Positions 1 to 19,148 of a DNA stretch of 34,738 nucleotides are shown here, piece after piece. Numbering within the stretch: the first letter of the stretch is position 1; every line of letters starts with the position of its first letter. The stretch is from a virus: positions 1-34,738 of the IMG/VR virus record IMGVR_UViG_3300017987_000231; one strand, written 5' to 3'. The position numbers and the translations under genes are program-made. Under the pieces are notes generated by a model, which was not told the DNA's origin, ran no database searches, and saw only the letters and a list, made by a program, of their open reading frames with translations.

Positions 1-1
1 C

Positions 2-565
2 GTGGCAACAGACCATGAGCAACGTCCGTCTGGTGATGGCACTGGTGGTACTGGTCCTAAAGCAGGAACTCGTGTAAGTCTGGTTGAATCCGATGCATTC
101 AATACTTCTTCCGACTTCAGTAGAATTAAGTTAGCGGTGCATGCAGAAGATGATGCCTGTCCTACGGCTCTGTTTGCTTTCGCGACAGATATTTCACTGA
201 CCATTAACAACAACATTTCGCCGAATAAAGCAATCGGCGTTCTTGGTGCATTCGATGTTACTGCTGGTACATTCCAAGTTGGAGGTAACATTACTGCTTA
301 CTTTGCTGATATTGCGGCAGTGACTGCTGTTCGGAACAATTCGGACATTACGCTCGATGCCCATTTGGTTAAATCCAATGCCGGCATCAGCATTGATCTT
401 CCGCTCATAACCCTGGGCGATGGTCGTGCAAACGTGGAGCAGGACTCACCGATCACGTTACCGCTTAGCAAAGAAGCTGCTACTGGTGCAAAGATTAGCT
501 CGGACTTAGACCACACTTTGTTAATGTGTTTCTATGACTACCTGCCGAGCTTGGCTGATGTTTAA
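2..565 (+). CDS. Phage major tail tube protein, 5' end outside window
   Basis: The reading frame is open at the left edge, so the GTG at the first codon is probably internal and the visible 187 residues are the C-terminal part. The segment has a Ser/Thr/Asp-rich beta-protein composition, with the pattern of a tail tube protein ending: [15 protein letters not shown], then a [11 protein letters not shown] strand, and a [10 protein letters not shown] strand. It directly precedes the tail assembly chaperone pair, the usual position of the tube protein in siphoviruses. Function is inferred from position and fold-like pattern, not from a unique motif. A tail terminator or a fused Ig-like domain are less likely alternatives. 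Confidence 0.65.
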
Positions 566-586
566 TGTTTTTATAGGGAGCACACT

Positions 587-1051
587 ATGAGCTTGAAAAG
601 ACAGTTTAAGACAGACTCCTCGTTGGAGTCGAAAGGTATCGTCATTGATTATGGCGATGCAAGAATCCGCATTGCACGTGCAGGTGGTGCGAATAAGAAG
701 TTCGCTCGGATCTTGGATATCAAGACCAAACCATTCCGACGTGCAATTGCTGCTGGATCGTTCGATAATGATAGATCGAATACGATCCTCATGGAAGTGT
801 ATGCCGATACGGTTGTGCTGGATTGGGAGACCAATGTTGGTAATGATGCTGATCCCAAATGGCAAAAAGGTATAGATCCGGAAGACGCTGGCGTGGAGAG
901 CGAAAAAGGTAAACTCTTGCCAGTAAATAAGGATAATGTCATGAAGGTCTTCCGTAATCTTCCCGACTTGTTCTTTGACATCCAACAACAGGCTCAAGCC
1001 GGAGCCTTGTTCCGAGCAGAATTGGACGAATCTGCTGCAAAAAACTCGTAG
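587..1051 (+). CDS. Tail assembly chaperone, short (gpG-like) product
   Basis: 154 residues. ATG start with a TAGGGAG Shine-Dalgarno element, 21 nt after the tail tube gene. It lies between tail tube and tape measure, as lambda gpG does, and its product would bind the tape measure before tube polymerisation. The N-terminal part is beta-rich and the C-terminal part is helical and acidic (residues about 100-150). The last codons contain a canonical A-AAA-AAC slippery heptamer in the correct frame, so ribosomes that shift back by one base continue into the next frame and make a longer gpGT-like protein. No motif proves the family. Position plus the frameshift signal is the main evidence. Confidence 0.75.
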   Translation: MSLKRQFKTDSSLESKGIVIDYGDARIRIARAGGANKKFARILDIKTKPFRRAIAAGSFDNDRSNTILMEVYADTVVLDWETNVGNDADPKWQKGIDPEDAGVESEKGKLLPVNKDNVMKVFRNLPDLFFDIQQQAQAGALFRAELDESAAKNS

Positions 1052-1082
1052 CGGTCCTGCTTTATTCAATAGAGCAAGGACC
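1039..1082 (+). promoter_or_regulatory. Programmed -1 ribosomal frameshift signal
   Basis: The slippery heptamer A-AAA-AAC occupies 1039-1045 in the zero frame (codons GCA AAA AAC). A 7-nt spacer follows, then a hairpin: the 5' arm at 1053-1064 pairs with 1070-1082, including GGTCC with GGACC and TGCT with AGCA, one bulged A, and a 5-nt loop. Heptamer, spacer and hairpin have the arrangement known from -1 frameshift sites in siphovirus tail assembly genes. Slippage at 1045 enters a frame with no stop until 1378-1380. Confidence 0.85.
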
Positions 1083-1380
1083 AGTCGAGCAGAAGATTAT
1101 CGACCAGTGTATGCGGGAACGGCTTCCTCTGCCAAAACGCATTCAGAATGCACCTGAAATGTGGATTGGACTTGAGTTATATTATGGAGCCTTTTTGGAT
1201 CTAAATACGTGTCGTCCAAGTGGCTGGAGTGTATGCCCTATCCCTTGGACTGCCATTGCTGATTATGCTGTAGCACATGAGATAAAAGGAGAACAGCGAG
1301 ACGACCTATTTTATTTCATTAGGTATCTTGATTCGGCATACCTGAAGTATTACGAAAAGAAGAATAAGTCTAAGAAATAG
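1045..1380 (+). CDS. Frameshift extension of tail assembly chaperone (gpT-like part)
   Basis: This frame is entered by the -1 shift at 1045 and adds about 111 residues to the 153 upstream, giving a fusion of about 264 residues. The join reads LVAVLLYSIEQ directly after the slippery codons. The frame has an internal ATG at 1111 but no Shine-Dalgarno element before it, so independent translation is unlikely. The extension is rich in Trp, Tyr and Lys (W-x-G-x-ELYYGAFLDL, then a basic tail of KKNKSKK). By analogy with lambda gpGT, the fusion would link the tape measure to tail tube subunits and be removed before completion of the tail. Confidence 0.8.
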   Translation, partial: LVAVLLYSIEQGPVEQKIIDQCMRERLPLPKRIQNAPEMWIGLELYYGAFLDLNTCRPSGWSVCPIPWTAIADYAVAHEIKGEQRDDLFYFIRYLDSAYLKYYEKKNKSKK

Positions 1381-1389
1381 GAGAGCAAC

Positions 1390-1842
1390 GTGAGCTTAGA
1401 GAGCTTCAGCCGAAGAATCAAGATCCGAGCGAATAACCTTCCTGGCGAAACGAATCGGGTCGTCAAGCAATGTGCTCTGGCTGTTGATCAGACTGTAGTT
1501 CTCGCCACACCTGTGGACACCGGTCGTGCCCGCTCCAACTGGCTCGTCTCCCTGGGCAATCCTGTCGAGCAGGTCATAGATCCCTATCAACCCTTGCCCA
1601 AGGGGACGAATCCAGACAAAGTTGGGGAGACGGGGAATGCTCGAGGAGCAATAGAACAAGGTAAGCAAGTTATCACGAGTCGGCAACCAGAGCAAACTGT
1701 ATTCATTACCAATAATGTTGATTATATTGGTTATCTTAATGAAGGAAGTTCTGCTCAGGCTCCAGCAATGTTTGTTGAGGCAGCAGTACAAGCTGGAGTG
1801 GCTGCGGTTCGTGGTGCTAGAATTGATACAGGGAAACGATAG
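1390..1842 (+). CDS. HK97 gp10-like / tail completion protein
   Basis: 150 residues. GTG start with a TAGGAGAG Shine-Dalgarno sequence. It carries the usual pattern of the gp10-like family: an N-terminal basic helix, then ATPVDTGRARSNW (residues about 39-51), the P-x-DTG-x-x-R-x-S-W signature in this family, then NNVDYIGYLNEGSSAQAPAMF near residue 110-130, where the Y-x-x-x-x-E-G-SS-x-QAP motif is typical. These proteins act at the head-tail connector or tail end. Here the gene sits between the chaperones and the tape measure, not upstream of the tube gene as is commoner. Its stop overlaps the next start by one base. Confidence 0.75.
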   Translation: MSLESFSRRIKIRANNLPGETNRVVKQCALAVDQTVVLATPVDTGRARSNWLVSLGNPVEQVIDPYQPLPKGTNPDKVGETGNARGAIEQGKQVITSRQPEQTVFITNNVDYIGYLNEGSSAQAPAMFVEAAVQAGVAAVRGARIDTGKR

Positions 1843-4793
1843 TGGCTACCGAACGAATTACTATAGTTGTAGAAGAGAAAGGAACTCGTGTTGTCAAGCG
1901 AAGAATTGGCGACATTGGTGACAGTGCAACTCTATCAGCTAAGGGTGTAGATCTTCTTAAGAGATCGTTAGTCACATTGGGAGCAGGTTATGTTGTGCGA
2001 GAACTTATTCGTACAGCAGATGCTTTCACAAATCTACAAAACCGATTGCGATTGGCAACAAGTGGCACTGCTGAATTGAACGCAGTGACTCGAGAATTGT
2101 TGGCAATTAGTAATAGAACCAGGACATCGTTAGAAGATAATGCTGAACTGTTTAACCGTGTGGCATTATCTGTTAGAGAGATGGGGATTAGTCAACAAGA
2201 TGTCCTCAATTTCACTGAGAGTTTGAACCAGGCAATTCTGATCTCTGGTGCTAATGCTCAAGAGGCACGAATGGGTATTATCCAGTTGAGTCAGGCTTTG
2301 GCTTCTGGCCGGTTGCAGGGAGATGAGCTTCGATCAGTCATGGAACAGCTTCGTGCTGTGAGTCAGGTTATTGCTAATGAGCTTGGTGTAACTCGTGGTG
2401 AATTGAAGAAGATGGGTGAGGAAGGAAAGATCTCGAGTGAAATAATTGTTAAGGCATTCATGAATGCTCGAGAAGAGTTGGCTGAACGCTTTACAAAGGT
2501 TATTCCTACTGTTGGTCAGGCTTGGCAAGTATTGCGCAATTCTGTTGTTGCTTACATTGGTGAGGCTAATACTGCTATTGGTGCTACACAATCGTTAAGT
2601 AGAGTAATGATTGTGCTTGCTAATAACTTGGATATAGTGATTCGTTCTGCCATTGTGCTTGGTGCAACATTCGCTGCTATTAAGATGGCACCATTTGTGC
2701 AGCAAACAATTCTGGCATCAGCAGCGTGGTATAAATTCCATCGAACGATTGCGATGGGAAATGCTGTACTATTAGGTTCAGCGGAAGCTACACGTCAACA
2801 AGCTGCTGCACAAGTCGCTGCTGCTGCTGCAGATTTACAAAAGACTCAGGCTGTATTGGCAAATGTACGGGCAGAGATGGCTCGTGCTGTAGTGGTTCGT
2901 GGTTCTACAGAAGCTCTTTTTGCTCAAGCTGCCATGGAAACACAGGTGGCTTTGCTGGAGAAACAGTTAGTAACTCAACATGCTGCTCTCACTGCTGCAC
3001 AAACGAACTTACGAAGAGCCACTCGTGCTGTTCGAATCGAAGGTACATTATTTGGTAGAACTCTAAAGGTTATTCGTGGAGGAATACATTCACTTACTGC
3101 TGCAATAGCTGCGAATCCTGTTGGTGCATTGTTAGTAGCTCTCACTGCTGCGACTACTTTATTGGTAGTCTTTAGTGATAAGATTAAACTGGCTGAAGGC
3201 TCTTCTGTTACGTTACGTGATGTTGGAGTTGCTGCTTTTGCAGAGTATCAGGATATTATTGGCGGATGCATGCTTGCTTTGAAGCAGTGGGTTGCAGAGT
3301 TTGAACCTTTACGGCAAGCTGTTATTTCTGTCTTTGGTGACATTAACTTTAACATGAATTCATTCCTACATGCTGCTGCTAAAGTAGCTGATAGTTTCGT
3401 TGGATTCTTTGTTGGTTCGTTCTATGCTTTAGGTAGATTATTCCAGCAATTCCCGAATCTAATAATTTCTGCTTTATTAGCTGCTGTGAATGGAGCCATT
3501 GCTTTAATTGAAGGTTTAATCAATGGTGCTATCAGTGCCATAAACTTCTTAGTTCAAAAAGCAGAGAATCTTATCAACAGTCTTATCCGAAGTGTGAATA
3601 AGGTTATTGACATTATTCCCGGTATTGATAAGGCATTGAGTGAAATTTCTTTAGGGAAAATAGAGACTGTAGATCTTGGTAGAATTGAAAATGATCTTGG
3701 CCAAGCTGCTACAGATTTTAGTAATGCTATTATTGGTGGTTTTGAAGAGGGCTTTACCAGAATTCATGGAGTTCAGGATCTGTTAGACCGAGCAATTGCT
3801 AGGGCAGAGGCTGCTGCCGCAAAACAAGGCGAGGGACCAGACCTGGCTACAGCCGCCGCTGGTGGTGCTCCCGCAGCGGAAACAGGTAAGTCCCCCGCCG
3901 AAAAAGCTCTTGAGAAACAAATAGAGGAGCAACAACAATTACAGAAATTGCTTCGTATGACCAATGAACAACGTGAAGTTGAAAATGAACTGATAAAGAT
4001 CACAGATAAACTTACACGAGAAAAAATAACACTTACGGATGCTCAAAAAGATCAATTGCGTGTAGAGCTTGAACGAACACAGTTATTGGAACAAGTGGCT
4101 GGTGCTTTGGATGAAGTTCGTGGAGTAACGATTGATCTCACTGCTGCACAAGCTGAACTTAATTCTCAAGTTGCCCGCCACGTTATCACTCAAGAACAGG
4201 CAACGCAGGCTTATCGTAAGTTACAGGATCAGATGCTTCAATCTTCCACCACAGCCGAAGCTGGTTGGACTCGTGGCTTGAATCGAATTGTAGATAAGGT
4301 AAATGACACAGGTGCAGCTGTAGAAGACACCTTGGTTAATGCTTTCAACAGTGCGGAAGATGCGTTGGTGGAATTTGTACAGACTGGTGAGTTTAATTTC
4401 AGCAGCCTGGTGGATTCCATCCTTGCGGATCTTACTCGCTTGCTCGCAAGACAAGCTATCTCTGGGCTTATTGGGATGATCGGTGGCCCAGCGGGTATGC
4501 TCGGTGGGTTATTTGCCAGTGCTGCTACATCGAGACAGGGTGGTGGCCCAGTAACTCCTGGCCATGGGTATTGGGTTGGAGAGAAAGGTCCAGAGCCATT
4601 TATACCGGATAGACCTGGCCATATTGTACCAGCACAGCAAGCTGCGGCTGCGGCTGCTCCGGAAGTGAATGTGCATATAACCAATGTAACGGATCCGAAT
4701 GAAGTGGCTGGTGCGTTAGCTACTCCAGATGGTGAGAAGGCAGTATTGAATATAATTCATCGTAATCGACGAGCTATACAAGGAATATCATAA
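1842..4793 (+). CDS. Tail tape measure protein
   Basis: 983 residues with a GTG start overlapping the upstream stop. Residues about 30-220 match the tape-measure N-terminal domain, with a DAFTNLQNRLRLATSGT segment followed by long helices and GRLQGDELRS-like turns. The middle is Ala-rich helical and coiled-coil-like (about 310-400), with hydrophobic stretches near 430-455 and 520-580 that resemble the membrane-active segments of tape measures. The C-terminal part holds the G-E-K-G-P-E-x-F-I-P turn and G-H-I-V-P (about 910-930), a conserved ending of lambda gpH-like proteins. The length would correspond to a tail of roughly 145 nm at 1.5 angstrom per residue, an inference only. Confidence 0.92.
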   Translation: MATERITIVVEEKGTRVVKRRIGDIGDSATLSAKGVDLLKRSLVTLGAGYVVRELIRTADAFTNLQNRLRLATSGTAELNAVTRELLAISNRTRTSLEDNAELFNRVALSVREMGISQQDVLNFTESLNQAILISGANAQEARMGIIQLSQALASGRLQGDELRSVMEQLRAVSQVIANELGVTRGELKKMGEEGKISSEIIVKAFMNAREELAERFTKVIPTVGQAWQVLRNSVVAYIGEANTAIGATQSLSRVMIVLANNLDIVIRSAIVLGATFAAIKMAPFVQQTILASAAWYKFHRTIAMGNAVLLGSAEATRQQAAAQVAAAAADLQKTQAVLANVRAEMARAVVVRGSTEALFAQAAMETQVALLEKQLVTQHAALTAAQTNLRRATRAVRIEGTLFGRTLKVIRGGIHSLTAAIAANPVGALLVALTAATTLLVVFSDKIKLAEGSSVTLRDVGVAAFAEYQDIIGGCMLALKQWVAEFEPLRQAVISVFGDINFNMNSFLHAAAKVADSFVGFFVGSFYALGRLFQQFPNLIISALLAAVNGAIALIEGLINGAISAINFLVQKAENLINSLIRSVNKVIDIIPGIDKALSEISLGKIETVDLGRIENDLGQAATDFSNAIIGGFEEGFTRIHGVQDLLDRAIARAEAAAAKQGEGPDLATAAAGGAPAAETGKSPAEKALEKQIEEQQQLQKLLRMTNEQREVENELIKITDKLTREKITLTDAQKDQLRVELERTQLLEQVAGALDEVRGVTIDLTAAQAELNSQVARHVITQEQATQAYRKLQDQMLQSSTTAEAGWTRGLNRIVDKVNDTGAAVEDTLVNAFNSAEDALVEFVQTGEFNFSSLVDSILADLTRLLARQAISGLIGMIGGPAGMLGGLFASAATSRQGGGPVTPGHGYWVGEKGPEPFIPDRPGHIVPAQQAAAAAAPEVNVHITNVTDPNEVAGALATPDGEKAVLNIIHRNRRAIQGIS

Positions 4794-6346
4794 TGGCGTT
4801 TCAAAGTGGAACAGCAACGGATTATCGAGATCTATTAGATCTTGTTGATAAGTTTGTTACGAATAGACATGTATCGGAAGTGGCTATCAATGCTGCTGGT
4901 ACTGGTTATGTTGTTGGTGATATTCTCACTGTCGCTGGTGGTACAGCTGAAGGTAGTATGACCGCTCAAATAGAGGTTCTCACTGTTGGTGGTTCTGGTG
5001 ATATTACTGCTGTTCGTGTTTATCAATCGGGAGCTTATTCTGGTGATCCGACTACAACAGCAAATGCTGTAACGGGTGGAACTGGTTCCAGTGCTACTAT
5101 GGATTTGACCATGGCAGATACTGGTTGGACGAATCGTATTAAGAACATTGCTGCTGCCACTGGTCCTATCGAAGTTGCTTCTGGAAATATCAGTGATGAT
5201 GGTAGTGGTTATGCTGTAGATGATATTGTTACTTTGAATGATACGTTTTCTGGTACATCTAAGGCACAATTCAAAGTATTAACTGTTGGTGGAAGTGGAC
5301 AAGTTCTTGCGATTGAAGTTTATGATCCTGGTGATTATGATGTTTATGGTTCAGGTTCACAACCCACAACTGGTGGTTCAGGAACTGGTTTACTAATAAC
5401 TCCTACTTTCATTCCTACACGAGATGAATATATGTGGGAAGGAAGTGGCACTGGTGGTAATGCTGTTTTTGTTGGTATAAGAACTGGTTATGCCTATAAT
5501 GAAGATCAAGTATCATGGGAATTGGCAGGTTATACTGGATATGGAAGTGGTTCCGATTGGGAGGGACAACCAGGTTTAAGCCCAGGGAGATGTGAGTTAG
5601 GAACCAGTAAGTATGGTTCAGTGGTATTATTATCGGAAGCCTCTATGAGTTTTTGGTTCTATGCTTCTGTGCGAAGAATCATTGTGGTAGCAAATGTATC
5701 TGGTAACTATCAATCCTGCTATCTTGGATTGTTAGATCCATTCGGAACTGATATTGAAATTCCTTATCCGCTCTTTGTTTGTGGATCGACGGATCGTTTT
5801 GATCGTGATATAGGAACTGCTCCTATTGATGTGCGTAGCATTGCTGATCCTACTTGTTATAGTGAGACTTCTGTTGGTCCTGGACAATTTCGTGATGGGG
5901 ATGCGTCATGGAATAAAGTTTGGAATGGTAATTATTATAGAGGCTACATACAAAATTCTGGTGCTATATCTGGATACTTTGTTTATCCTTGTTCTGAACC
6001 AAGCACCAGTGGAATGCAAGATGAAAATTTGTTTACCACGTTTGTTTCCCCTTGTTGGGAAGATGTGATTCAGGATAACAGATATTCTGCACAAGATGTA
6101 AGATTCAAACCTTCACCTGATTCTGGTGGAGATATATATTGGCCTATTCCTTGTGTTATTATGAGAAGTGAAGGAGTGGGGACATTTAAGGTTATTGGTG
6201 AAATAAATGGAGTGTTCTGGTTAAGTGCAGAAGATGGCATTGCTGTTGAAGATCGATTAATTACAGCGGGGGGCAGATACTTTAGAGTCTTCCAAATGGG
6301 AGCAAATTCAGTGCCTTATGCACACTTTTGTGTTGAGGAAAACTAA
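4793..6346 (+). CDS. Virion structural protein with two internal repeats
   Basis: 517 residues. The ATG overlaps the tape measure stop (TAATG). The N-terminus MAFQSGTA is shared with the next gene (MAYSSGTA), so the two are probably related. Residues about 30-105 and 125-200 are two copies of a Gly-rich beta unit: each has G-x-GY-x-V-x-D-I-x-T, then a (K/E)VLTVGGSG strand, then an (A/E)V-Y-x-x-G-x-Y strand. After residue 215 comes a domain with a FWFYASVRRIIVVANVSG strand and a later YP-LFVCGS segment, a pattern I associate with phage tail-tip or fibre-associated virion proteins. Exact role unknown; located among tail-tip genes, so probably distal tail or adhesion. Confidence 0.6.
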   Translation: MAFQSGTATDYRDLLDLVDKFVTNRHVSEVAINAAGTGYVVGDILTVAGGTAEGSMTAQIEVLTVGGSGDITAVRVYQSGAYSGDPTTTANAVTGGTGSSATMDLTMADTGWTNRIKNIAAATGPIEVASGNISDDGSGYAVDDIVTLNDTFSGTSKAQFKVLTVGGSGQVLAIEVYDPGDYDVYGSGSQPTTGGSGTGLLITPTFIPTRDEYMWEGSGTGGNAVFVGIRTGYAYNEDQVSWELAGYTGYGSGSDWEGQPGLSPGRCELGTSKYGSVVLLSEASMSFWFYASVRRIIVVANVSGNYQSCYLGLLDPFGTDIEIPYPLFVCGSTDRFDRDIGTAPIDVRSIADPTCYSETSVGPGQFRDGDASWNKVWNGNYYRGYIQNSGAISGYFVYPCSEPSTSGMQDENLFTTFVSPCWEDVIQDNRYSAQDVRFKPSPDSGGDIYWPIPCVIMRSEGVGTFKVIGEINGVFWLSAEDGIAVEDRLITAGGRYFRVFQMGANSVPYAHFCVEEN

Positions 6347-6348
6347 TT

Positions 6349-7368
6349 ATGGCATATTCAAGTGGAACAGCAAGCAGCATGAATGACCTTATGAGTCAGC
6401 TGTCTACGTTCTGTCAAGCGAACGGCTGGACTCAGGATCAATATACGGCTGAATCTGGTGGGACACACGGTAAACTCTCTCTTCATAAGGGCACTGTGTA
6501 TGTTCATTTTCAATGGAATTCTAGCATTGCTGCTAGTATAGCAATGTATCAATCATTAGGATTTATAAGTTCTGGTACAAATATATGGGCACATACGGAT
6601 GATTCAGGAAATGGGCCTTCAACTGTTCCTATTGCTACATGGGATAATCCTACTTACACAGGTCGTTATCGCTTGATAAGTGAAATTGGAGCCGGTCCTT
6701 ATACTTCTCATGCTTTCTTTCAAGGTAATGGCGTGGAAGATTATGTACACGTGGTTCTTGAATTTGCACCTTATATTTATCGGCATTTTGGATTTGGTAT
6801 TTTAGAAAAATCTTGGGATTGGACTGGTGGTGAATATGCTTATGCCCATTGCCAAACTTATACTCCTGATAATTATTTTCAGGATATCCTTCTTCCTTCA
6901 CAAGGAGTAGCAAGTTCTACCTATGCAAATCGTTTTGCCACTGTGCATGCAGAAGGATTGCCTGGTGAACCTGTAAATAGTAAATGGGGAACGTTTGCTA
7001 AATTTAGTGCATTGAATTCCAGCTGGTCTGATCGGGCCGGTGAATATCAAATTCGTTTTCTTGGTGGTAGTCCTGGTGGATTTATTGGTAATCATTTTAT
7101 CAACATGCCTAGTAATGCTGGTGATGGGTTTTTACCATTAAATGCTAATGCTATTTTCTATCGTGATCTTTCACCTACACCTGATAATCTTTATTTCATG
7201 GGATTCCAACCTGATGTGCGTTCTTTGAATATGAAGAGCTTTTCTCCAAAAGATGAGGTAAGTGTGGCCGGTGATACATGGGTTATATTCCCTGCGGTAA
7301 GAAAACAAAACACAGGCGATAAAAATGAATCAGAGAATTGGGGTATTGCATATAAAAAGATAACTTGA
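6349..7368 (+). CDS. Virion structural protein, relative of the preceding gene
   Basis: 339 residues. ATG two bases after the upstream stop. It begins with the same MA-x-x-SGTA-x-x-x-x-DL pattern as its neighbour but lacks the two Gly-rich repeat units, so it keeps only the N-terminal cap and the C-terminal domain type. The middle contains YIYRHFGFGILEKSWDWTGG, a motif seen in a family of phage virion proteins found next to tail-tip genes. No enzymatic motif is visible. The stop overlaps the next start by one base. Probably a distal tail protein, with function not assignable from sequence alone. Confidence 0.6.
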   Translation: MAYSSGTASSMNDLMSQLSTFCQANGWTQDQYTAESGGTHGKLSLHKGTVYVHFQWNSSIAASIAMYQSLGFISSGTNIWAHTDDSGNGPSTVPIATWDNPTYTGRYRLISEIGAGPYTSHAFFQGNGVEDYVHVVLEFAPYIYRHFGFGILEKSWDWTGGEYAYAHCQTYTPDNYFQDILLPSQGVASSTYANRFATVHAEGLPGEPVNSKWGTFAKFSALNSSWSDRAGEYQIRFLGGSPGGFIGNHFINMPSNAGDGFLPLNANAIFYRDLSPTPDNLYFMGFQPDVRSLNMKSFSPKDEVSVAGDTWVIFPAVRKQNTGDKNESENWGIAYKKIT

Positions 7369-9110
7369 TGGCAGATTATATAGCACAAATTGATGATCGT
7401 GTTTCCCTATCAGAATTTCTTGGTACAAATCGTTTTGTACCAACTGGTGTAGGTTCATATATTCTTCGAGCACAAAGTGAACAAGGAACAGTTCTTCGTC
7501 TTAATCCAGATATTCCTATTGATGGTGATTGTGAATTAGATCCTGTTTCTCCGAAGACTGAAGTTAATTTAGATAAACACGATGCCATTGCTTATGCTGA
7601 CGATCGTTTTGATGAAGCTGATGTTTGGTTTGAACAAGCCATCGTACGACCATTAGCATTTAGTTTTGGCAATATTCTTTCTACACAAACTGATGAGATC
7701 ACAGTTTATAGCTCTTATCGTTGGGATGACATTACTCTCACTGAAGTGGTAAATAATCTTGGTGCTGGAGTAGAGCTTCCCGACCTTCCTTCACTACCAA
7801 CTATATTACAGCCACAATCTGGATTTGTGGTAACATTACAAGTTTCTACAGAAGGCAGCCCAACACTTAACGATACACTTGATTTTGTATTTGACGTTGA
7901 TACAGTTAGTGTGCTTATAACTGGTCGTCGTATTGTCATGTTTCCTGTACGACCGGAAGCTCCTGTCAAGGAAATCTTAGAATTTCTTACTGATATCATG
8001 GAGCATCTTGATGGTTCAGAACAACGAGTTGCTGATCGTAAGAATCCGAGACAGGAGTTCGAATTTGCTTTGGCCTTAGATGGTAACACTCGTCGGTTCG
8101 TAGAGAACTTACTATTCGACTGGCAATCCCGTGTATTTGGCTTACCAATTTGGCATGAGCCTTCTTTTCTCACGGCTGCTGCCACCCTTGGGCAGTCATC
8201 GATCTCCGTTGATGACACGACGTTGGGAGATTATAGAGAAGGTGGTATGGCCATTGTCCTCACGGACCGATTTACCTATGATGCTTTGGAGATTGCTACT
8301 CTTGGCTCCCAGACTATTACATTTACCAGTCCTTTGAACAATTCATATCCTGCTGGTACAGAAGTCTATCCACTCCGCACGGCTATAACCACAAGCCCAT
8401 TACGAGGTAGTCGTTCTTTATTCAATAATCGAAACATGGCTATAAAGTTTCGTGTTCTTGATAATGATGTTGGAGATAGTTTTGCAGACACCAGTGCATT
8501 TAATACACTTAGTAGCAAGGTTCTATTAGATGGACCGAATGCTTCTGAGCGAGACATGAGTGATATTCTTGCCAGACGAATGGTGGAATTTGATAATGAA
8601 ACTGGTGCATTTGGTATAAGTAGTCCATGGAGTCGAGGGAAACGGACTGCAGTAAAAGGCTTCATAATGCACAGTCGACAAGATGTGTGGGATGTTCGTC
8701 GATTGCTTCATGCTTTACGTGGCCGGCAAATATCATTCTATATGCCTACTTTTTACGATGAGTTTGAACTCACCATTAAACTGCAAAATGGAAGCCAGAC
8801 TATTAACATTGTGAATGTTGGCTTTGCACAATTCGCACAAGGTCGCATGCCTTCTCGTGGTATTATTCGTGTTATACGAACTAATGGAGATATCCTTGTA
8901 CGAAACATTAATTCAGCCGGTGAAGTAGATGCTGAGAATGAACAGATAATTGTAGATGTGGCCTGGCCAGAAGATATTGAAATAGAAGACATCGAGCGAA
9001 TTGAATATGTGGAGCTTGTACGAGCAGACACAGATCGTTTTACCTTTGAACATTACAATGCTATTGGAGATGCTTCTCTTAGCTTTCCTGTGAAAGTTGT
9101 GTTTGCATGA
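7368..9110 (+). CDS. Tail tip / distal tail-like protein
   Basis: 580 residues. I take the ATG at 7368 that overlaps the upstream stop; a TTG at 7365 would add one residue. The protein is beta-rich and acidic. It has a central SRVFGLPIWHEP segment (about 260-272) and a late LLHALRGRQISFYMPTFYDE segment (about 445-465). These two motifs recur in phage proteins encoded just before the BR0599-family hub gene, and fit a role at the distal end of the tail tube. It is translationally coupled to the next gene (ATGA). No peptidase or hydrolase residues are recognised. Confidence 0.6.
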   Translation: MADYIAQIDDRVSLSEFLGTNRFVPTGVGSYILRAQSEQGTVLRLNPDIPIDGDCELDPVSPKTEVNLDKHDAIAYADDRFDEADVWFEQAIVRPLAFSFGNILSTQTDEITVYSSYRWDDITLTEVVNNLGAGVELPDLPSLPTILQPQSGFVVTLQVSTEGSPTLNDTLDFVFDVDTVSVLITGRRIVMFPVRPEAPVKEILEFLTDIMEHLDGSEQRVADRKNPRQEFEFALALDGNTRRFVENLLFDWQSRVFGLPIWHEPSFLTAAATLGQSSISVDDTTLGDYREGGMAIVLTDRFTYDALEIATLGSQTITFTSPLNNSYPAGTEVYPLRTAITTSPLRGSRSLFNNRNMAIKFRVLDNDVGDSFADTSAFNTLSSKVLLDGPNASERDMSDILARRMVEFDNETGAFGISSPWSRGKRTAVKGFIMHSRQDVWDVRRLLHALRGRQISFYMPTFYDEFELTIKLQNGSQTINIVNVGFAQFAQGRMPSRGIIRVIRTNGDILVRNINSAGEVDAENEQIIVDVAWPEDIEIEDIERIEYVELVRADTDRFTFEHYNAIGDASLSFPVKVVFA

Positions 9111-9934
9111 CAGATTATAATGCATTTGAAATATCAGAACAAAGCGGTCAGCCAACCGAATTTTATGAGTTCGTGTTGTCTGATACTCAATATAATTACA
9201 CATCCGCAGAAGATGAAATCACAATAGGTGCTATAACCTATTTACCTATTTCGATTGCTCGATCTAACATTCTTCTTGGAGTAGAACAACGGCAGGAAAT
9301 TCTTACAATCACCATGCCCAGTGGGACTGCACCGGCGGATGAGTTCATCGCCGTCGTCCCTGGGCAGATATGCACCCTCACGATCAAGAGACGACATCGA
9401 ACAGATACACCAACACCAGAATTGATTGTGATCTATAAGGGCATAGTTCGTTCAGTAGCATACACCAAGAATGGATATGAAAGTGAACTGGCTGTTGTGC
9501 CTCTTACTTATGGACTTGGTAAAGAGGTGCCTCGGTTTACTTATCAGGGATTATGTAACCATATTTTGTATGATACTTATGGTTGTAAAGTATCTTCTGG
9601 GAGTTTTAGTTTTACGGGTGAAGTAACTAATGTTGATGGAAATGTATTGACAATACCAGGCATTGGTTCAGGTGATGGTTATCCTGATAAATGGTGGACT
9701 GGTGGATATGTGCAATATCAAACGAATGATTGGCGATTGATTATAGATCATACTGGAGAAGACATTACTTTGCTTTTACCGTTTCCGTCTAATGTAGATG
9801 GACAGGACGTTACAATCTTTGCTGGTTGTGATCACACCATTGCTGTTTGTAAAGCTAAATTCAATAATGTGGAGAATTATGGTGGCTTTGCGTTTGTGCC
9901 ACAAAAAGATATCTTTAGAAATGGAATAGATTAA
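9107..9934 (+). CDS. Phage BR0599 family tail hub/baseplate protein
   Basis: 275 residues. The ATG overlaps the stop of the preceding gene. The C-terminal half matches the BR0599 family: Y-x-x-LCNHILYD-x-YGCKV (about 145-160), a G-x-V-x-x-V-x-G-x-x-L strand, a DKWWTGGYVQ segment, and FAGCDHTIAVCKAKFNNVENYGGF near the end. The four Cys in these motifs (two in the first pair, GCD and VCK later) suggest a metal or disulfide site. In gene transfer agents and lambda-like tails this family lies between the distal tail and central tip proteins. It ends on PQKDIFRNGID, close to the usual family end. Confidence 0.8.
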   Translation: MTDYNAFEISEQSGQPTEFYEFVLSDTQYNYTSAEDEITIGAITYLPISIARSNILLGVEQRQEILTITMPSGTAPADEFIAVVPGQICTLTIKRRHRTDTPTPELIVIYKGIVRSVAYTKNGYESELAVVPLTYGLGKEVPRFTYQGLCNHILYDTYGCKVSSGSFSFTGEVTNVDGNVLTIPGIGSGDGYPDKWWTGGYVQYQTNDWRLIIDHTGEDITLLLPFPSNVDGQDVTIFAGCDHTIAVCKAKFNNVENYGGFAFVPQKDIFRNGID

Positions 9935-9935
9935 C

Positions 9936-10499
9936 ATGAGAAAAGCATTTATGATTCTGTTGGTTTTTGTGATGTGTGGTATGTGTTTTGCTGAAGAATG
10001 TATTTGGGAAAGAGGTCCAGGTGGGTGGGCTAATTGGTCCGATCCAAATAATTGGTGTGACGGGAAAGTGCCTAGTAATCCTAATGATATAGCAAGTTTT
10101 CCTGAATGGGAATATTCCAATATCTTGGTTGAAGATGAAGATATTATTATTGCAACTATTAATGCTGGGAATTATACACAATTTCGTTTTGTGAATTCTA
10201 ATGTTGAAATAATCTATTTTAATTCAGGAACAACTACTGGAGTTGAATTGTGGTCAGGATTTTTAAGTATTGATATTATTAGTGGCGGACATTTTCTAAT
10301 AGGTTCTGGCACATTTATTTTTAATACTTTTAATTTTAATTCCACTCATGGAAACGGAAATTTGTCAATAAATCAAAATGCTTATATTCAAGGTAGGGAT
10401 AGTATTCTTGGAGATTTTAATAGTGATGGTTTTGTTAATTTAATGGATTTATCTATTTTAGCACAACATTGGCTCGAAACAACGGAGCATCCAGAATAA
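9936..10499 (+). CDS. Secreted dockerin-repeat protein inserted in the tail module
   Basis: 187 residues. Residues 1-19 form a signal peptide (MRK, hydrophobic core, cleavage after CFA). Residues about 28-55 have GGWANWSDPNNW followed by VPSNPND, a beta-helix entry motif common in planctomycete secreted proteins. Residues 55-157 look like short beta-helix turns rich in Asn, Phe and Ile. Residues 160-180 form a half-dockerin: D160, N162, D164, G165 and D171 line the Ca loop, and HWL ends the helix. The gene sits between two tail-tip genes with a 1-base gap upstream and no clear Shine-Dalgarno sequence, and is more AT-rich than its neighbours. It may be a moron or an envelope-facing virion factor. 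Exact function unknown. Confidence 0.7.
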   Translation: MRKAFMILLVFVMCGMCFAEECIWERGPGGWANWSDPNNWCDGKVPSNPNDIASFPEWEYSNILVEDEDIIIATINAGNYTQFRFVNSNVEIIYFNSGTTTGVELWSGFLSIDIISGGHFLIGSGTFIFNTFNFNSTHGNGNLSINQNAYIQGRDSILGDFNSDGFVNLMDLSILAQHWLETTEHPE

Positions 10500-10500
10500 T

Positions 10501-13335
10501 ATGGCTTTCTTTGTTACTCTATTATTGTTTGCTGCTGCCTTAGTTCTCAGCGAAGTTCTTAAACCAAAACCTGAGAATGAAAATGTACGTCCAGCAGCAT
10601 TGGGAGATTTTACGTTTCCAACCACAACAGAAGAACGAGTGGTGCCATTAATCTGGGGCACTGTTAAAATGGAGGGACCAAATGTAATTTGGTACGGAGA
10701 TCTTAAACAGAAAGCTATCAAGGAGAAAGTAAAAACTGGTTTATTTTCTTCGGATGAAATCACGACTGGTTATGAGTATTACATCGGGATTCAATTTGGA
10801 TTGTGTCGTGGCCCAGTAGATAACATTCGTCGGATATGGATTGGGGATGAGGAGGTCTGGTCTGGAGCACAAGCCTCCGGTGATATTGCTATTAGTGAAC
10901 CGAATTTATTTGGTGGAAGTGAGCTTGGTCAAGGTGGTGTTGTAGGAAACTTTAATTTTTATAATGGCAGTTTGGTGCAGTCTGTTAATCCTTATATATC
11001 TGCATTTCAACAAGAGGGAGGAGATACACCAGCTTATCGTGGCACTTGCTATGGTGTATTTAAACATGGATATATTGGCAACTCTACTAATATAAAAGCA
11101 TGGTCATTTGAGTTACGTCGTATTCCTGAGGGACCGGGTGGTCTCACCAAAGCAGTCAATGATGGTAATGATGCGAACCTTGCTTATGTTGCTTATGAAA
11201 TCATAACAAATAGAGAATGGGGATTGAATTTTCCACCTGCAGATGTAGATGAAGATGCATTTAATGCTGCAGCAACTACCTTACAGAGTGAAGGTAATGG
11301 TTTCAGCTTCATACTTGATAGTGCTCGGGATATCTCAGAACTATTAGAAGAAGTTCAACGACAGATGGATGGGGTGATCTTTTTAGATACGAGCACAGGG
11401 AAGTGGACTATTAAACTGGCTCGCAACGATTATAACCCTGCCACTATCCCTGTGCTTAGTGAAACGAATATTGTGGAAGTCAAGGACTTTACTCGTGGTA
11501 CATGGCAAGACACCACAAATTATGTTACGACTCCATTCAAAGATAGAGCAAGAGATTATTTTGGTACGTTTGGTTTGGCTCAAGATATGGCCAATTATAA
11601 TATTCAACAAAAAATTGTAAAATCAAGCATAAATTTTCCTGGAGTAAAGGATGCCACTCTGGCAAATTCTCTTGCTTGGAGAGAATTACGAGCATTAAGT
11701 TTTCCGTTAGCAAAGGCAACTCTTATCGTAAACAGAGAAATGTGGGAGCTTACACCAACGTCTGTTCTTAAATGGACATCGGCTGCCCTTGGCTTTGAGA
11801 ATCTTATTATGCGAGTAAGTCGCATTGATCTTGGTGAATTGATAAATGGTCGTATCACTCTTACTCTCGTGCAGGATGTTTATGCTACAGAGCCTCCTTC
11901 CTTCGGTGATCCTCCTGCTTCTGGTTGGACACCACCGAGTAATGTAGCTGTAGCAATACCGTCTGCAGAATCAGTGGTCATAGAGGCTCCGCTTGCTATA
12001 TCGATTCGCGATCCTGATGCTTCTACTAACAGTTTACCATTCAGAATATGGGCAGCAGGTAGGAACCAAAACGATGGCAGCGTGGAGTTTGATCTACGCA
12101 CTCGCAAAGATGGTGGTGGTTCGATCTATGAGACAGAACGAACTATTGATAAATTCCTATTGATAGGAGAATTGGTTGGCACATTAAGTGAAGCGGTATC
12201 TGATGCCACTATTGATGTAGATCCTGCATCGGATAATGTCGATGAAATGCTGGATGAATTCCAAACCGTGGACGATACTATTCTCGGTAACGATCTCACA
12301 CATTTAATTCTCATTGATTCTGAATTCATATTAGCAAGATCAGCAAGTGATGTTGGTGGCAATCTTCGTTTAGCCAATGTATATCGTGGTGTGTTGGATT
12401 CTGCGATCACCACTCATGGAGCAAGCAGCAAGGTCTATCTCCTTTTTGCCGGTGGAGGAATTGGGAACCGCTCCTGGGCTAATGGGAACACAGTCTTCTC
12501 CAAGTTGGTTACTCGAACAACGGATGGGGAATTAACAGAGGGTGATGCTACCATTAAGACAGTGGTTATGAACAATCGACATCTTAGACCTTATCCACCT
12601 ATTGGCTTTGATTGTAATGGAGCAGGGGATTATGATACCGGTCCGCATAGTTTAGATGCAAATGGTTCTTTAGATGCTGCTGGCATTGAAGTTACTTTTA
12701 AGCGACGAGACTATCTTGAATATCAGGAAAATATCCGACAGGTAAATGATAATGATGCTGCTCCTTCTGAAGCTTCAACTGAATATCGTATTAAAGTATG
12801 GAACATGAGCGGTACACCAACAGTTCTTTATACTGAAGATTATAATGGTGGTGGCAATACTGTATTCATTGAAAGAACAAGAGTTCTTCGTTATAATGCC
12901 GGTGTAATTCCCAGTTCGTTACGAGGAGATATACAAACAAAACATACACTTAGTGCTGTTGATTATACTGCATTGCAAGATGCCATCTTTGAATTTGATG
13001 TCAGTTCCACAGAATTAAGTGGTGATTTTAACTTTGGTGTTCTTGCGGCCAGTGCTGTTTCTCCTGCTTGGACTGCTCCTGATACTGGCAGCTATTCTCT
13101 TGATATAGGAACAGCATTTACATCTGGTACAATACGAGCACGAATCAATGGAGGTAGTTGGCAGGATATAATAACTGCAGGGAATACGAATGGGAGCCTG
13201 ACGGGTGTTACGGCAGGTGATACAATAGAGGTTTATGCAACCGGAGTAAACTTCGGGGGAGTGAGGAACGAAACTATCCTCATCGTGGATTCGCCAGTGT
13301 CCTCCACCGATGCTTACGCAATCTTTAGGGTATAA
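10501..13335 (+). CDS. Tail tip attachment protein (gpJ / phage tail protein 3-like)
   Basis: 944 residues. ATG one base after the previous stop. Residues 3-17 are hydrophobic. Then come PLIWGTVKMEGPNVIWYGD (about 50-68), a conserved entry in gpJ-like central tip proteins, and YRGTCYGVFKHGYIGNS-x-NI with WSFELRRIP (about 180-210). The next part, YEIITNREWGLNFP and the DISELLEEVQRQMDGVIF region (about 230-300), matches the hub domains of lambda gpJ and gene transfer agent tip proteins. The C-terminal third is beta-rich with fibronectin-like strands and a DTIEVYATG segment, suitable for receptor contact. It is probably the host-range determinant of the tail tip. Confidence 0.8.
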   Translation: MAFFVTLLLFAAALVLSEVLKPKPENENVRPAALGDFTFPTTTEERVVPLIWGTVKMEGPNVIWYGDLKQKAIKEKVKTGLFSSDEITTGYEYYIGIQFGLCRGPVDNIRRIWIGDEEVWSGAQASGDIAISEPNLFGGSELGQGGVVGNFNFYNGSLVQSVNPYISAFQQEGGDTPAYRGTCYGVFKHGYIGNSTNIKAWSFELRRIPEGPGGLTKAVNDGNDANLAYVAYEIITNREWGLNFPPADVDEDAFNAAATTLQSEGNGFSFILDSARDISELLEEVQRQMDGVIFLDTSTGKWTIKLARNDYNPATIPVLSETNIVEVKDFTRGTWQDTTNYVTTPFKDRARDYFGTFGLAQDMANYNIQQKIVKSSINFPGVKDATLANSLAWRELRALSFPLAKATLIVNREMWELTPTSVLKWTSAALGFENLIMRVSRIDLGELINGRITLTLVQDVYATEPPSFGDPPASGWTPPSNVAVAIPSAESVVIEAPLAISIRDPDASTNSLPFRIWAAGRNQNDGSVEFDLRTRKDGGGSIYETERTIDKFLLIGELVGTLSEAVSDATIDVDPASDNVDEMLDEFQTVDDTILGNDLTHLILIDSEFILARSASDVGGNLRLANVYRGVLDSAITTHGASSKVYLLFAGGGIGNRSWANGNTVFSKLVTRTTDGELTEGDATIKTVVMNNRHLRPYPPIGFDCNGAGDYDTGPHSLDANGSLDAAGIEVTFKRRDYLEYQENIRQVNDNDAAPSEASTEYRIKVWNMSGTPTVLYTEDYNGGGNTVFIERTRVLRYNAGVIPSSLRGDIQTKHTLSAVDYTALQDAIFEFDVSSTELSGDFNFGVLAASAVSPAWTAPDTGSYSLDIGTAFTSGTIRARINGGSWQDIITAGNTNGSLTGVTAGDTIEVYATGVNFGGVRNETILIVDSPVSSTDAYAIFRV

Positions 13336-13342
13336 TACTAAT

Positions 13343-13672
13343 ATGGCAGACGATAAGAAAACAAACGAACAAGTTCCGCAGTGTACTCATCCGAACTGTA
13401 TTCTCATGACTCGAGAAGAGTTTCGGGAAGAGTTATCAGGTCTGGTAAAAACAACGGTACAGGAATCCGTAAAGGAGACCTTTACCCTATTTGGGATAGA
13501 TGTGGCCAAGCCCATAGAATTACAGCGGGACTTCCAGTTCCTCCGGGACTGGCGAATCACCACAGCGTCCATACGGGGTAAGGCTATCATCACCGGAGTC
13601 GGTCTTATCGTTGCCGGCATCATCGCTGTCGCCTGGCTCGGCATTAAAATCCTAATATCTAAGGTGCCGTAG
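13343..13672 (+). CDS. Small membrane-anchored phage protein
   Basis: 109 residues from the ATG at 13343; an upstream in-frame start at 13310 would lie inside the gpJ-like gene. The N-terminal part is hydrophilic with a C-x-HPNC motif (residues 14-19). A helical amphipathic middle (EELSGLVKTTVQESVKETF) follows, and then one strong transmembrane helix at about 82-105 (AIITGVGLIVAGIIAVAWLGI). It closes the tail module. The position fits a holin-like or virion-associated membrane protein, but holin function cannot be shown: there is no adjacent lysin in the window. Confidence 0.6.
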   Translation: MADDKKTNEQVPQCTHPNCILMTREEFREELSGLVKTTVQESVKETFTLFGIDVAKPIELQRDFQFLRDWRITTASIRGKAIITGVGLIVAGIIAVAWLGIKILISKVP

Positions 13673-16583: not shown

Positions 16584-18050
16584 ATGAGTTATCAATATAA
16601 AACAAAACCTTTCGATCATCAACGAAAAGAATTTGAAGAACATGGAATAGATCCATCGAGAGGATTATTCTGGGAGCAGGGGACAGGTAAGACTAAGCCT
16701 GTCATAGATTCAACAGCTATGCTGTATGATGCGGATGAGATTGATGGCCTTTGTGTTATTGCTCCTAATGGTGTACACAGGAATTGGGTATCAGATGAGT
16801 TGCCAGCACATCTTCCTGATGCCATTGCTGAACGAACACGTGCACATATTTGGTATAGCACAGATGCTTTATACCATAAAGAATCGTTTAATGAGACATT
16901 GAAGCATGATGGTTTAGCTGTCTTTGTCATTTCTTATCCAGCTATATGGACCGATCGAGGACGGGATGCATGGAAAGCCTTTTTGAAGAAGCGACGTTGC
17001 ATGTATGTTCTTGATGAAAGTCAGCGGGTAAAAAATCCTAATGCTAAATGGTCTCGTAGGATTATGGGGAGTAGTACAGTTGGAGCGGATTATCGTAGAT
17101 GTTTGAGTGGGACTCCTTGTAGTAATAGTCCTTTTGATGTGTACAATCAATTGCGTTTTCTAGATCCAGATATTTGGAAACGGCTTGGTCTTTTAGACTT
17201 TAGTATGTTCAAACAATATTTTGGATTCTGGCAGACATTTGTTCGTAAGGATGAACGAACATTTACGCAGTGTGTTGCTTATAAGAATCTAAATACACTT
17301 CATCAGCTTCTACACCAGCTTGGTTCTCGTGTGACTAAAGATGAAGTCTTTGATCTACCTCCCAAACTGTATTCTAAACGATATTTTGATGTGAGTCCTA
17401 AGCAAGCAGAGATCTATCAGAAATTAAAAGATGAGTTGATGGTAGAATTAAAGAATGGTACACTTTCTGCTCCTTTAGCAATTAATCGTTTATTACGGTT
17501 TCAACAGATTGCTTGTGGATATTTACCAGCAAGTGATGATGATCCCACCTTACAACCAATAGATAAGATTAATAGACGGTTACAATGCACAATAGAAACT
17601 TGTGAAGATCTTAGTCATCAAGCCTTAATATGGGCACGGTTCACTCAAGATATAGATTTGCTTCGTAATCATGCCTTCATGCGAGAAAAGGATCGTTGTG
17701 TATTTGTAGATGGACGAATTACTGGTCCTAAACGTGGAGAAGAACTGGATAAGTTCAAACGTGGAGATGTGCAATTTCTCATTGCTAATGTACAGACGGA
17801 TGGTGTTCGTTCAGGACAGACCTTATTAGGTAAGACCGTGATTTATCATAGCAATGACTTCAGCCTAGAACATCGTCAACAGTCAGAAGATAGAGCACAC
17901 CGGTGGGGAGCAGATACGGAAGAATCTGTAAACTACATTGATATTGTCGCTCATGGAATCCCAATAGATATGAGAATTATAGGCTCTTTACGTGAGAAGC
18001 TAGATGTCGCCAGCATGGTGACTGGCGATAATATAAAAGACTGGATTTAA
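16584..18050 (+). CDS. SNF2-like superfamily 2 DNA helicase
   Basis: 488 residues. Motif I is EQGTGKT (31-37), motif II is DESQ (144-147, in the place of DEAH/DESH and followed by RVKNP), motif III is SGTP (175-178), and the RFLDPDIW stretch after it is typical of phage SNF2 helicases. The C-terminal half holds the second RecA domain, with HRQQSEDRAHRWG as motif VI near 430-445. Such helicases accompany family A polymerases in many phages and may drive replication or recombination. Complete, with the family's usual length. The ATG at 16584 has no strong ribosome site. Confidence 0.9.
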   Translation: MSYQYKTKPFDHQRKEFEEHGIDPSRGLFWEQGTGKTKPVIDSTAMLYDADEIDGLCVIAPNGVHRNWVSDELPAHLPDAIAERTRAHIWYSTDALYHKESFNETLKHDGLAVFVISYPAIWTDRGRDAWKAFLKKRRCMYVLDESQRVKNPNAKWSRRIMGSSTVGADYRRCLSGTPCSNSPFDVYNQLRFLDPDIWKRLGLLDFSMFKQYFGFWQTFVRKDERTFTQCVAYKNLNTLHQLLHQLGSRVTKDEVFDLPPKLYSKRYFDVSPKQAEIYQKLKDELMVELKNGTLSAPLAINRLLRFQQIACGYLPASDDDPTLQPIDKINRRLQCTIETCEDLSHQALIWARFTQDIDLLRNHAFMREKDRCVFVDGRITGPKRGEELDKFKRGDVQFLIANVQTDGVRSGQTLLGKTVIYHSNDFSLEHRQQSEDRAHRWGADTEESVNYIDIVAHGIPIDMRIIGSLREKLDVASMVTGDNIKDWI

Positions 18051-18063
18051 TAGGAGAATCGGC

Positions 18064-18585
18064 ATGAAAAAGAAAGTGACCTTGGCAATTGGCTTATTGG
18101 TTTGTTGCATTGCTGTTATTTGTGCGGTGGTGCATGCGCAGCAGCCAATAACGGATGGGAATGGCGACGGTCAGGTGAATATGCAGGACTTTGCCAATAT
18201 GGCGAATGACTGGTTAACATCTGGCTATGCTGGTCTTGGCAGTAATGCCAGGATTGATGTTGGCTTTTATACGGGTAATGGTACATCAGCCAATACCATT
18301 CAAATGGTTTTACATTACCTGGAACGTGTACCGGATTTTATCTTGGTGTTTCCGCTGAGTGCGACTCACGATATTTTTCCGGCTATTATACTTAATGACG
18401 GTGACGATACAAAGATTAAGTTCTTCAACAATCGAGACTGCGATGTCTTTGAGGAGCTAATGAGTATCGAGTATAATAATTTCAAAGTAACCAATATCAC
18501 CACCAACGGGAGCTTCTGGCTAAACCGAGATGGTGATCGGTATTTCTATGTCGCTGTCAGCAAAGAAATACCGGCAATGCCCTAA
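18064..18585 (+). CDS. Secreted protein: half-dockerin fused to fibre-tip-like domain
   Basis: 173 residues. Strong Shine-Dalgarno (TAGGAGA). Residues 1-25 form a signal peptide ending VHA. Residues 31-51 are a dockerin repeat with Ca-loop positions D31, N33, D35, G36 and D42, and a final DWL. Residues 62-173 resemble the C-terminal domain of phage tail fibres: VGFYTGNGTSANTIQM, then PDFILVFPL, and near the end GSFWLNRDGDRYFYVAV. It is placed between helicase and recombination-type genes, away from the tail module. A tail adhesin domain with a secretion signal and a dockerin could be a surface-exclusion or envelope-anchored factor. That role is inference. Confidence 0.72.
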   Translation: MKKKVTLAIGLLVCCIAVICAVVHAQQPITDGNGDGQVNMQDFANMANDWLTSGYAGLGSNARIDVGFYTGNGTSANTIQMVLHYLERVPDFILVFPLSATHDIFPAIILNDGDDTKIKFFNNRDCDVFEELMSIEYNNFKVTNITTNGSFWLNRDGDRYFYVAVSKEIPAMP

Positions 18586-18596
18586 AGGAGATTCAG

Positions 18597-19148
18597 ATGT
18601 CCCCAGATCAATTTGCTGACTTTCGTCCAGAGGAGAAGCCTTCCGACGAGGCATTCGCTAAACTAGACCAGATGATTAAGGATCTGGTTGCCTCTCGTAC
18701 TGCCGTGGCTGATGCTGAGGATGCCCTCAAGAAAGCCCAAGAGAACCGACGGCAGTTGGAGGAGTTTACCATTCCTGAGTACATGATCGACACCCTTGGG
18801 CTTGAGGAGTTCCGCAACAAGGATGGACTTCGAGTGAAGGTGGTTAAGAAGATACGAGCCTCTATCGGGAAAAGGAAGGCAGAGGCATTCCAATGGCTTA
18901 TCGATAATGGATATGATACCTTAATCAAACGTACAGTACAGGTTGCCTTTAACCGTGAGCAAGGCGACGATGCTGAAGCATTGATGAAGGAATTGGAGCC
19001 TAAGTTTGCCGGTGTGCGGCAGGACATGAAGGTTGAAGCTGCAACACTTACAGCGTGGGTGAAGAAAATGTTGGAAGATGGTAAGGAAGTTCCCCACGAT
19101 ATATTCGGTGTATTTGAACAGCGTTTTGCTGAAATAGACGTAAAGTGA
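18597..19148 (+). CDS. Coiled-coil phage protein of replication/recombination region
   Basis: 183 residues, ATG with AAAGGAG upstream. Residues about 18-60 are a coiled coil (LVASRTAVADAEDALKKAQ). Then comes FTIPEYMIDTLGLEEF, a KVVKKIRASIGKRK strand, EAFQWLIDNGYDTLIKR (about 98-115), and VEAATLTAWVKKMLEDGKEVP (about 145-168). This series is typical of a conserved phage protein that is commonly encoded beside an ssDNA-binding protein, as here. No catalytic motif. It may act as an accessory to DNA annealing or protection; function not established. Confidence 0.65.
   Translation: MSPDQFADFRPEEKPSDEAFAKLDQMIKDLVASRTAVADAEDALKKAQENRRQLEEFTIPEYMIDTLGLEEFRNKDGLRVKVVKKIRASIGKRKAEAFQWLIDNGYDTLIKRTVQVAFNREQGDDAEALMKELEPKFAGVRQDMKVEAATLTAWVKKMLEDGKEVPHDIFGVFEQRFAEIDVK

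What the first reader, a model, noticed from the sequence alone, without database searches (positions are those of the whole stretch)
18064..18585. Dockerin repeat fused to a phage fibre-tip-like domain with a signal peptide
This small protein combines secretion, a half-dockerin and a domain of the kind found at the end of tail fibres. It is coded in the replication region, not with tail genes. A receptor-binding domain exported to the cell surface during infection could mask the receptor (superinfection exclusion) or free progeny from debris. I know of no described system of this design.
Basis: inference. Interest (0 to 1): 0.75.

Follow-up and report, generated by a model that had tools for sequence, protein, structure and literature searches.

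The report
Exported phage protein with fibre-tip domain
A virus of bacteria carries, among its DNA-copying genes, a small gene for an exported protein that joins a calcium-binding tag to a piece resembling the tip of a virus tail fibre, which could let it coat the surface of an infected cell; what it does is untested.

Summary
Window 18064-18585 is a credible gene (173 aa) in the replication operon. It encodes a Sec-type signal peptide, one calcium-loop dockerin repeat, and a C-terminal domain (about residues 63-172) of the kind that ends phage tail fibres. A profile built from 55 representatives of 117 fibre open frames sharing GxYTGNGT scores it 42.7 bits, and 16.1 bits with that motif removed, against at most 6.5 for 1000 shuffles. 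All six of those fibre proteins scanned belong to DUF7483 / 'tail fiber protein'. The protein itself stays below Pfam's cut-offs for DUF7483 and Dockerin_1.

The combination was not found in 117 fibre frames or in the other loci. A looser design, signal peptide + N-terminal dockerin + another domain (LamG in some), recurs in six other viral contigs that carry head, tail or packaging genes. This phage also encodes a second exported dockerin protein.

Best reading: an exported adhesin, coded with replication genes, that occupies surface glycans (superinfection exclusion or anti-readsorption). No function was tested. The window's own tail proteins lack this domain, which weakens self-receptor masking. 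Host unproven (probably Planctomycetota).

The parts
18064..18585 (+). CDS, 173 aa, the exported dockerin / fibre-tip protein (P0001)
   Evidence: codon usage
18052..18057 (+). ribosome-binding site AGGAGA
   Evidence: read from sequence
18064..18141 (+). Sec-type signal peptide, about residues 1-26, probable cut after HA
   Evidence: sequence; home-made rule; no lipobox seen (motif recalled)
18154..18213 (+). single dockerin repeat with calcium loop, residues 31-50 (D31, N33, D35, N39, D42, W50)
18250..18579 (+). fibre-tip-type domain (GxYTGNGT / DUF7483 C-terminal module type), residues 63-172
   Evidence: weak structural support
16584..18050 (+). upstream neighbour: SNF2-family helicase
   Evidence: relatives
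18597..19148 (+). downstream neighbour: DUF7307 (Pam3 gp33-like; annotated host-nuclease inhibitor in Pam3)
9936..10499 (+). second exported dockerin protein of the same phage (P0002, 187 aa), dockerin at the C-terminus
   Evidence: 21.2 bits, below the cut-off; 23 bits, over the cut-off
10413..10472 (+). dockerin repeat of P0002

Best explanation
The gene encodes a phage protein exported by the host's Sec system. Its C-terminal domain is a single fibre-tip module of the type that ends DUF7483 tail fibres, probably a beta-sandwich that binds a cell-surface glycan. Its N-terminal calcium-loop half-dockerin probably holds it to the host's own envelope or extracellular matrix, for instance to host cohesins. 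Made with the replication genes, before lysis, it most likely occupies surface glycans so that further phages do not adsorb, or so that progeny are not trapped on infected cells and debris. Shown by sequence: gene, signal peptide (simple rule), dockerin loop, fibre-type domain, operon position. Inferred: export, surface retention, glycan binding, timing, exclusion.
For: Fibre-type domain: 42.7 bits; motif-free part 16.1 bits vs at most 6.5 in 1000 shuffles; motif kept and rest shuffled at most 30.0. Among 6,840 open frames from other loci and the window it ranks just behind L143, whose frame holds three such modules in a contig with a tape-measure gene. The module is terminal in fibres: it starts within 140 aa of the C-terminus in 84 of 104 3'-complete frames, and 6 of 6 scanned are DUF7483 / phrog_24898 tail fiber protein. 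Signal peptide. Dockerin loop. Replication operon slot that holds a different gene (PF23992) in PaMx11 and Pam3. Six other viral contigs encode signal peptide + N-terminal dockerin proteins; LamG passes its cut-off in L076 and in a second dockerin protein of L079. Phages are known to make envelope proteins that block receptors (T5 Llp, PMC9586334, passages read).
Against: No other frame of the window carries the domain, so it does not copy a visible tip of this phage. Of 20 viral records examined (the window and 19 others with dockerin frames), DUF7483 was found only in L143's record. No cohesin in 9 viral records; a host cohesin is assumed. A single repeat is not a classical dockerin. In a diderm host Sec export alone reaches only the periplasm (general knowledge). 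Found in one contig only. The domain is below Pfam's DUF7483 cut-off, and hhalign against DUF7483 modules gave only 13.7% probability.
Confidence: 0.35

Rival explanations
1. Host-benefit or host-modification gene (moron): the exported adhesin lets the infected or lysogenic cell stick to polysaccharide or neighbours, or changes its matrix, without blocking phage adsorption.
For: A second exported dockerin protein of different design (P0002) in the same phage. Many dockerin-motif frames in viral contigs look exported: 31 of 93 against 50 of 921 other frames in the same loci, home-made rule. Papers place dockerins among carbohydrate- or peptide-degrading functions of Planctomycetes (PMC5264255, PMC6461901, passages read).
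Against: The C-terminal domain resembles phage fibres rather than a host surface protein. No integrase was noticed in the window (not searched for specifically). Position inside the replication operon.
Confidence: 0.22
2. Release factor: acts late at the envelope, as a partner of lysis or by competing with virions for debris.
For: In L064, L112 and L130 the dockerin gene lies near small membrane-protein genes that look holin-like by eye (no meaningful family match for the L064 one).
Against: Here it lies with replication genes, not next to the holin-like gene at 13310-13672 (holin-like by eye; only a family of unknown function matches).
Confidence: 0.13
3. A passenger gene with no selected role, kept by chance after a recombination replaced the Pam3_gp32-type gene.
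For: Single known copy. The slot holds another gene in relatives and that family is absent from the window.
Against: Intact frame, good ribosome-binding site, phage-like codon usage, GC 0.433 equal to the window's 0.434, three domains in a sensible order.
Confidence: 0.15
4. An ordinary virion part (short fibre or decoration) whose N-terminus only looks like a signal peptide.
For: The domain is a virion domain elsewhere. One 1793-aa and one 676-aa fibre frame also begin with a signal-like stretch by the rule used (2 of 91).
Against: 173 aa, whereas all 78 complete fibre frames have at least 250 aa. No virion-attachment region recognised. Not among tail genes.
Confidence: 0.1

Closest known systems
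DUF7483 (PF24299) tail fibres, phrog_24898
   Same: C-terminal module with GxYTGNGT, P, N and Y.Y.A positions
   Different: One module instead of a 330-position domain or more; 173 aa instead of 250 aa or more; signal peptide and dockerin added; below the Pfam cut-off
Dockerin type I (PF00404), as in cellulosomes and the proposed planctosome (PMC6461901, passages read)
   Same: Calcium loop D-N-D-N-D and spacing; exported
   Different: One repeat only; at the N-terminus of a fibre-type domain; no cohesin in the window
Phage T5 Llp and related superinfection-exclusion lipoproteins (PMC9586334, passages read); Ltp of TP-J34 (PMC3952083, abstract start and passages read)
   Same: Small phage-encoded protein with an export signal
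   Different: Those are lipoproteins; this one has no lipobox and has a fibre-type domain. The shared function is a guess
Signal peptide + N-terminal dockerin proteins in viral contigs L064, L076, L079, L112, L130, L133
   Same: Same order: signal peptide, dockerin loop, then another domain; contigs have phage structural or packaging genes
   Different: Their C-terminal parts are LamG or unassigned (L130 and L133 are cut by the contig or locus end), not fibre-tip; the neighbours seen are structural or packaging genes

Membership tests
DUF7483 (PF24299) | score over the curated cut-off (27 bits) | tested here: not met
   no match of P0001 at E<=1 or of its pieces at E<=10; no match in the window
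GxYTGNGT fibre module (C-terminal module of DUF7483-type fibres; my grouping) | profile match clear of shuffles, also without the motif | tested here: met
   42.7 bits; 16.1 without motif vs at most 6.5 in 1000 shuffles
GxYTGNGT fibre module (C-terminal module of DUF7483-type fibres; my grouping) | same fold | tested here: inconclusive
   alone pLDDT 49.0; with 23 fibre rows 66.3, pTM 0.61, which leans on those rows; BFVD top hit a tail fiber protein, E 6.4e-5; PDB best E 0.16; VIA best Z 5.3
Dockerin type I (PF00404) | score over the curated cut-off (22.9 bits) | tested here: not met
   16.4 bits, 17.6 bits
Dockerin type I (PF00404) | calcium-loop residues | tested here: met
   loop pattern matched, 0 expected
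Dockerin type I (PF00404) | two repeats | tested here: not met
   one loop; in the viral sample 59 of 116 frames had one loop, 57 two
Dockerin type I (PF00404) | binds a cohesin | not testable with these tools
   no cohesin in 9 viral records; host genome unknown
Llp/Cor/Ltp-type superinfection-exclusion lipoproteins | lipoprotein signal (lipobox) | tested here: not met
   read from sequence, no lipobox before any cysteine (motif recalled)
Llp/Cor/Ltp-type superinfection-exclusion lipoproteins | blocks adsorption or DNA entry | not testable with these tools
   needs an assay
Structural tail fibre | part of the virion | not testable with these tools
   needs mass spectrometry; length and signal peptide argue against

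The most novel reading that the evidence does not exclude
A class of exported phage decoys: phages of bacteria that build their surface with dockerins (probably Planctomycetota) put lectin or fibre-tip domains on the infected cell through the host's own dockerin-type attachment, and so close it to competing phages. This gene would be the clearest case, because its displayed domain is itself a tail-fibre tip module.
Probability: 0.22. Interest if true: 0.82.

Novelty: new variant of a known kind. Interest (0 to 1): 0.56.

Why it matters
If the inference is right, a phage has separated a fibre tip from its fibre, given it an export signal and a host-style attachment tag, and used it as a soluble surface blocker. 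The known exclusion proteins that I compared (T5 Llp, Ltp) are lipoproteins. The wider sample suggests that exported dockerin proteins are a repeated feature of viral contigs (31 of 93 motif frames by a simple rule), which makes host surface attachment by dockerins a testable theme in phage-host contact.

Tried and rejected
Close relatives: none for P0001 in viral contigs (5 stretches) or genome contigs (53 stretches); phages gave one match at E 5, plasmids two at E 8-9; PDB by sequence none. PHROGs and NCBIfam: none. A second genome-contig scan with P0002 gave only a weak Solirubrobacter match, judged unhelpful; that genome has no P0001 match. The host could not be surveyed because no planctomycete genome could be reached.

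Similarity to this phage's own tail proteins: BLAST of the domain against eight of them gave nothing better than E 0.78; hhalign of 6349-7365 against the fibre modules scored 3.5% probability.

Profile-profile test: hhalign of the domain against 23 DUF7483 modules gave 13.7% probability, score 22.9; the best of 150 shuffles had 22.0. The 150 'other frame' pieces of that test reached 71.7%, but their pool contained DUF7483 proteins themselves, so that control is void. The cleaner tests are. First profile (36 DUF7483 modules): 14.6 bits vs at most 8.5 in 998 shuffles; with the 21 rows below 65% identity to the first member 13.3, and with the 13 rows below 60% 11.5 vs 8.0. L003 was chosen because it was the best hit, so these weaker figures are biased upward. 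The later GxYTGNGT set was chosen by an 8-residue motif, hence the motif-free control.

Structure: Foldseek against PDB had no match at E 0.001 or better; VIA matches (galectins, phage tailspikes, T7 gp17 tip) have Z 5.3 or less, which the tool calls possibly only a common arrangement. The model was guided by fibre sequences, so its likeness to fibres is partly circular. A profile of that alignment against PDB sequences gave one chance-level match (E 0.45).

Signal-peptide counts use a home-made rule that misses two cases I accept by eye (L079, L112) and includes greedy open frames that may not be genes. Scans with the neighbouring genes brought no close relative of this phage.

Full report
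What is there. The window is a 34,738-base virus record from a tailed phage whose replication block resembles that of PaMx11 (Mesyanzhinovviridae) and Pam3: SNF2 helicase, one small gene, a DUF7307 gene, further helicase, ribonucleotide reductase. In PaMx11 and Pam3 the small gene between helicase and DUF7307 gene is of the Pam3_gp32 family, PF23992. In the window that family is absent and the slot holds the 173-aa gene of the finding. It has its own ribosome-binding site, gaps of 13 and 11 bp to its neighbours, GC of 0.433 (window 0.434) and codon usage in the range of true genes.

Three parts. (1) Residues 1-26 look like a Sec signal peptide without a lipobox. By the rule used only three window frames pass: this one, P0002 and a frame at 16212. 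(2) Residues 31-50 form one dockerin calcium loop followed by the tryptophan spacing also seen in P0002; the joint pattern has two matches in the window and none in 100 shuffles. Pfam's score is below its cut-off, so 'half-dockerin' is the right word. (3) Residues 63-172 match the C-terminal module of DUF7483-type tail fibres.

How the fibre assignment was tested. The first lead was weak: one tblastn hit at E 5 in a marine phage protein that proved to be DUF7483. A profile from 36 such modules gave 14.6 bits against at most 8.5 in 998 shuffles and kept 11.5-13.3 bits when close relatives of the lead were left out. Among 6,840 open frames from other loci and the window, only L143 ranked above it; L143 holds three such modules and lies in a contig with a tape-measure gene. 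Of 104 with a complete 3' end, 84 have the module starting within 140 aa of the C-terminus; all 78 complete frames have 250 aa or more. Six scanned were all DUF7483 and phrog_24898 'tail fiber protein'. A profile of 55 representatives gave the domain 42.7 bits. With everything up to and including the motif removed it gave 16.1, while 1000 shuffles of that part reached at most 6.5; with the motif kept and the rest shuffled the best of 1000 was 30.0. I take this as good evidence of common descent. Structure prediction adds little: pLDDT 49.0 alone, 66.3 with fibre rows, and the fold matches are weak or partly circular. hhalign was unimpressive.

How unusual is the combination. None of the 117 GxYTGNGT frames holds a dockerin motif, and 2 of 91 with a complete 5' end pass the signal rule. 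Apart from the window's gene, no frame in the dockerin sample matches the fibre profile clearly, except that L143 carries both features in different frames. Yet the looser design is not rare. In a capped scan of viral contigs for the dockerin pattern (119 stretches), 31 of 93 distinct motif frames have signal-like starts against 50 of 921 other frames in the same loci. Six contigs have the same order as our protein, signal peptide then dockerin: L064, L076, L130 and L133 by the rule, L079 and L112 by eye. LamG passes its cut-off in L076 and in the second dockerin protein of L079. All six contigs carry phage head, tail or packaging genes. So the gene looks like a special case of a wider class of exported viral dockerin proteins, with a fibre-tip module in place of a lectin-like or unassigned domain.

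What it may do. The parts point to an exported adhesin. The operon position suggests production during replication, before lysis. The most economical role is to occupy surface glycans: against later phages, or so that progeny do not stick to infected cells and debris. That purpose is described for T5 Llp, by another mechanism (PMC9586334, passages). Two results speak against the simplest version: the tail proteins of this window lack the module, and of 20 viral records searched only L143's holds DUF7483. The blocked competitor would therefore have to be another phage, or a fibre outside this window. Attachment to the host through dockerin and cohesin is also only inferred: no cohesin is coded in 9 viral records. 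Planctomycetes are reported to carry dockerins, and cohesin-dockerin modules without evidence of cellulose degradation (PMC5264255, PMC6461901, passages), but the host of this phage is unproven; the link to that phylum rests on my recall of their dockerin style.

Literature. Full-text searches combining dockerin with phage, tail fiber, signal peptide, Planctomycetes, Phycisphaer-, prophage or phage genome showed no description of such a protein in their listings. The one phage paper among them that links dockerin to a virion protein concerns a carbohydrate-binding module likeness in an E. coli phage structural protein (PMC5967307, passages).

Verdict. New variant of a known kind.

Noticed in passing
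window 9936-10499 (+): A second exported dockerin protein (187 aa, C-terminal dockerin, 23 bits and over Pfam's cut-off, 21.2 and below it) sits between a BR0599-type gene and the J-like tail gene; its GC is 0.324 against 0.434 for the window, suggesting recent acquisition.
   Followed up: partly
window 1-11144 and L121: IMGVR_UViG_3300017989_000790 matches window 1-11144 at 99.94% and runs about 1 kb further upstream. I recognised no capsid, portal or large terminase gene in the window, so it looks like a partial genome.
   Followed up: partly
L064, L079, L112: In three divergent viral contigs the signal-dockerin protein is followed by a protein with a DGKT(L) stretch, and small membrane or exported proteins lie nearby: possibly a conserved little cassette (by eye).
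   Followed up: no
L143: A viral contig with three tandem fibre modules after tail genes also codes, at its other end, a protein with S-layer-like repeats (by eye) and a dockerin motif.
   Followed up: no
L261: A 1793-aa GxYTGNGT frame begins with a signal-peptide-like stretch, unusual for a fibre.
   Followed up: no
Viral contigs sample L063-L181: Dockerin loops are common in viral frames without a signal peptide too, some apparently structural; 57 of 116 frames have two loops, 59 one.
   Followed up: partly
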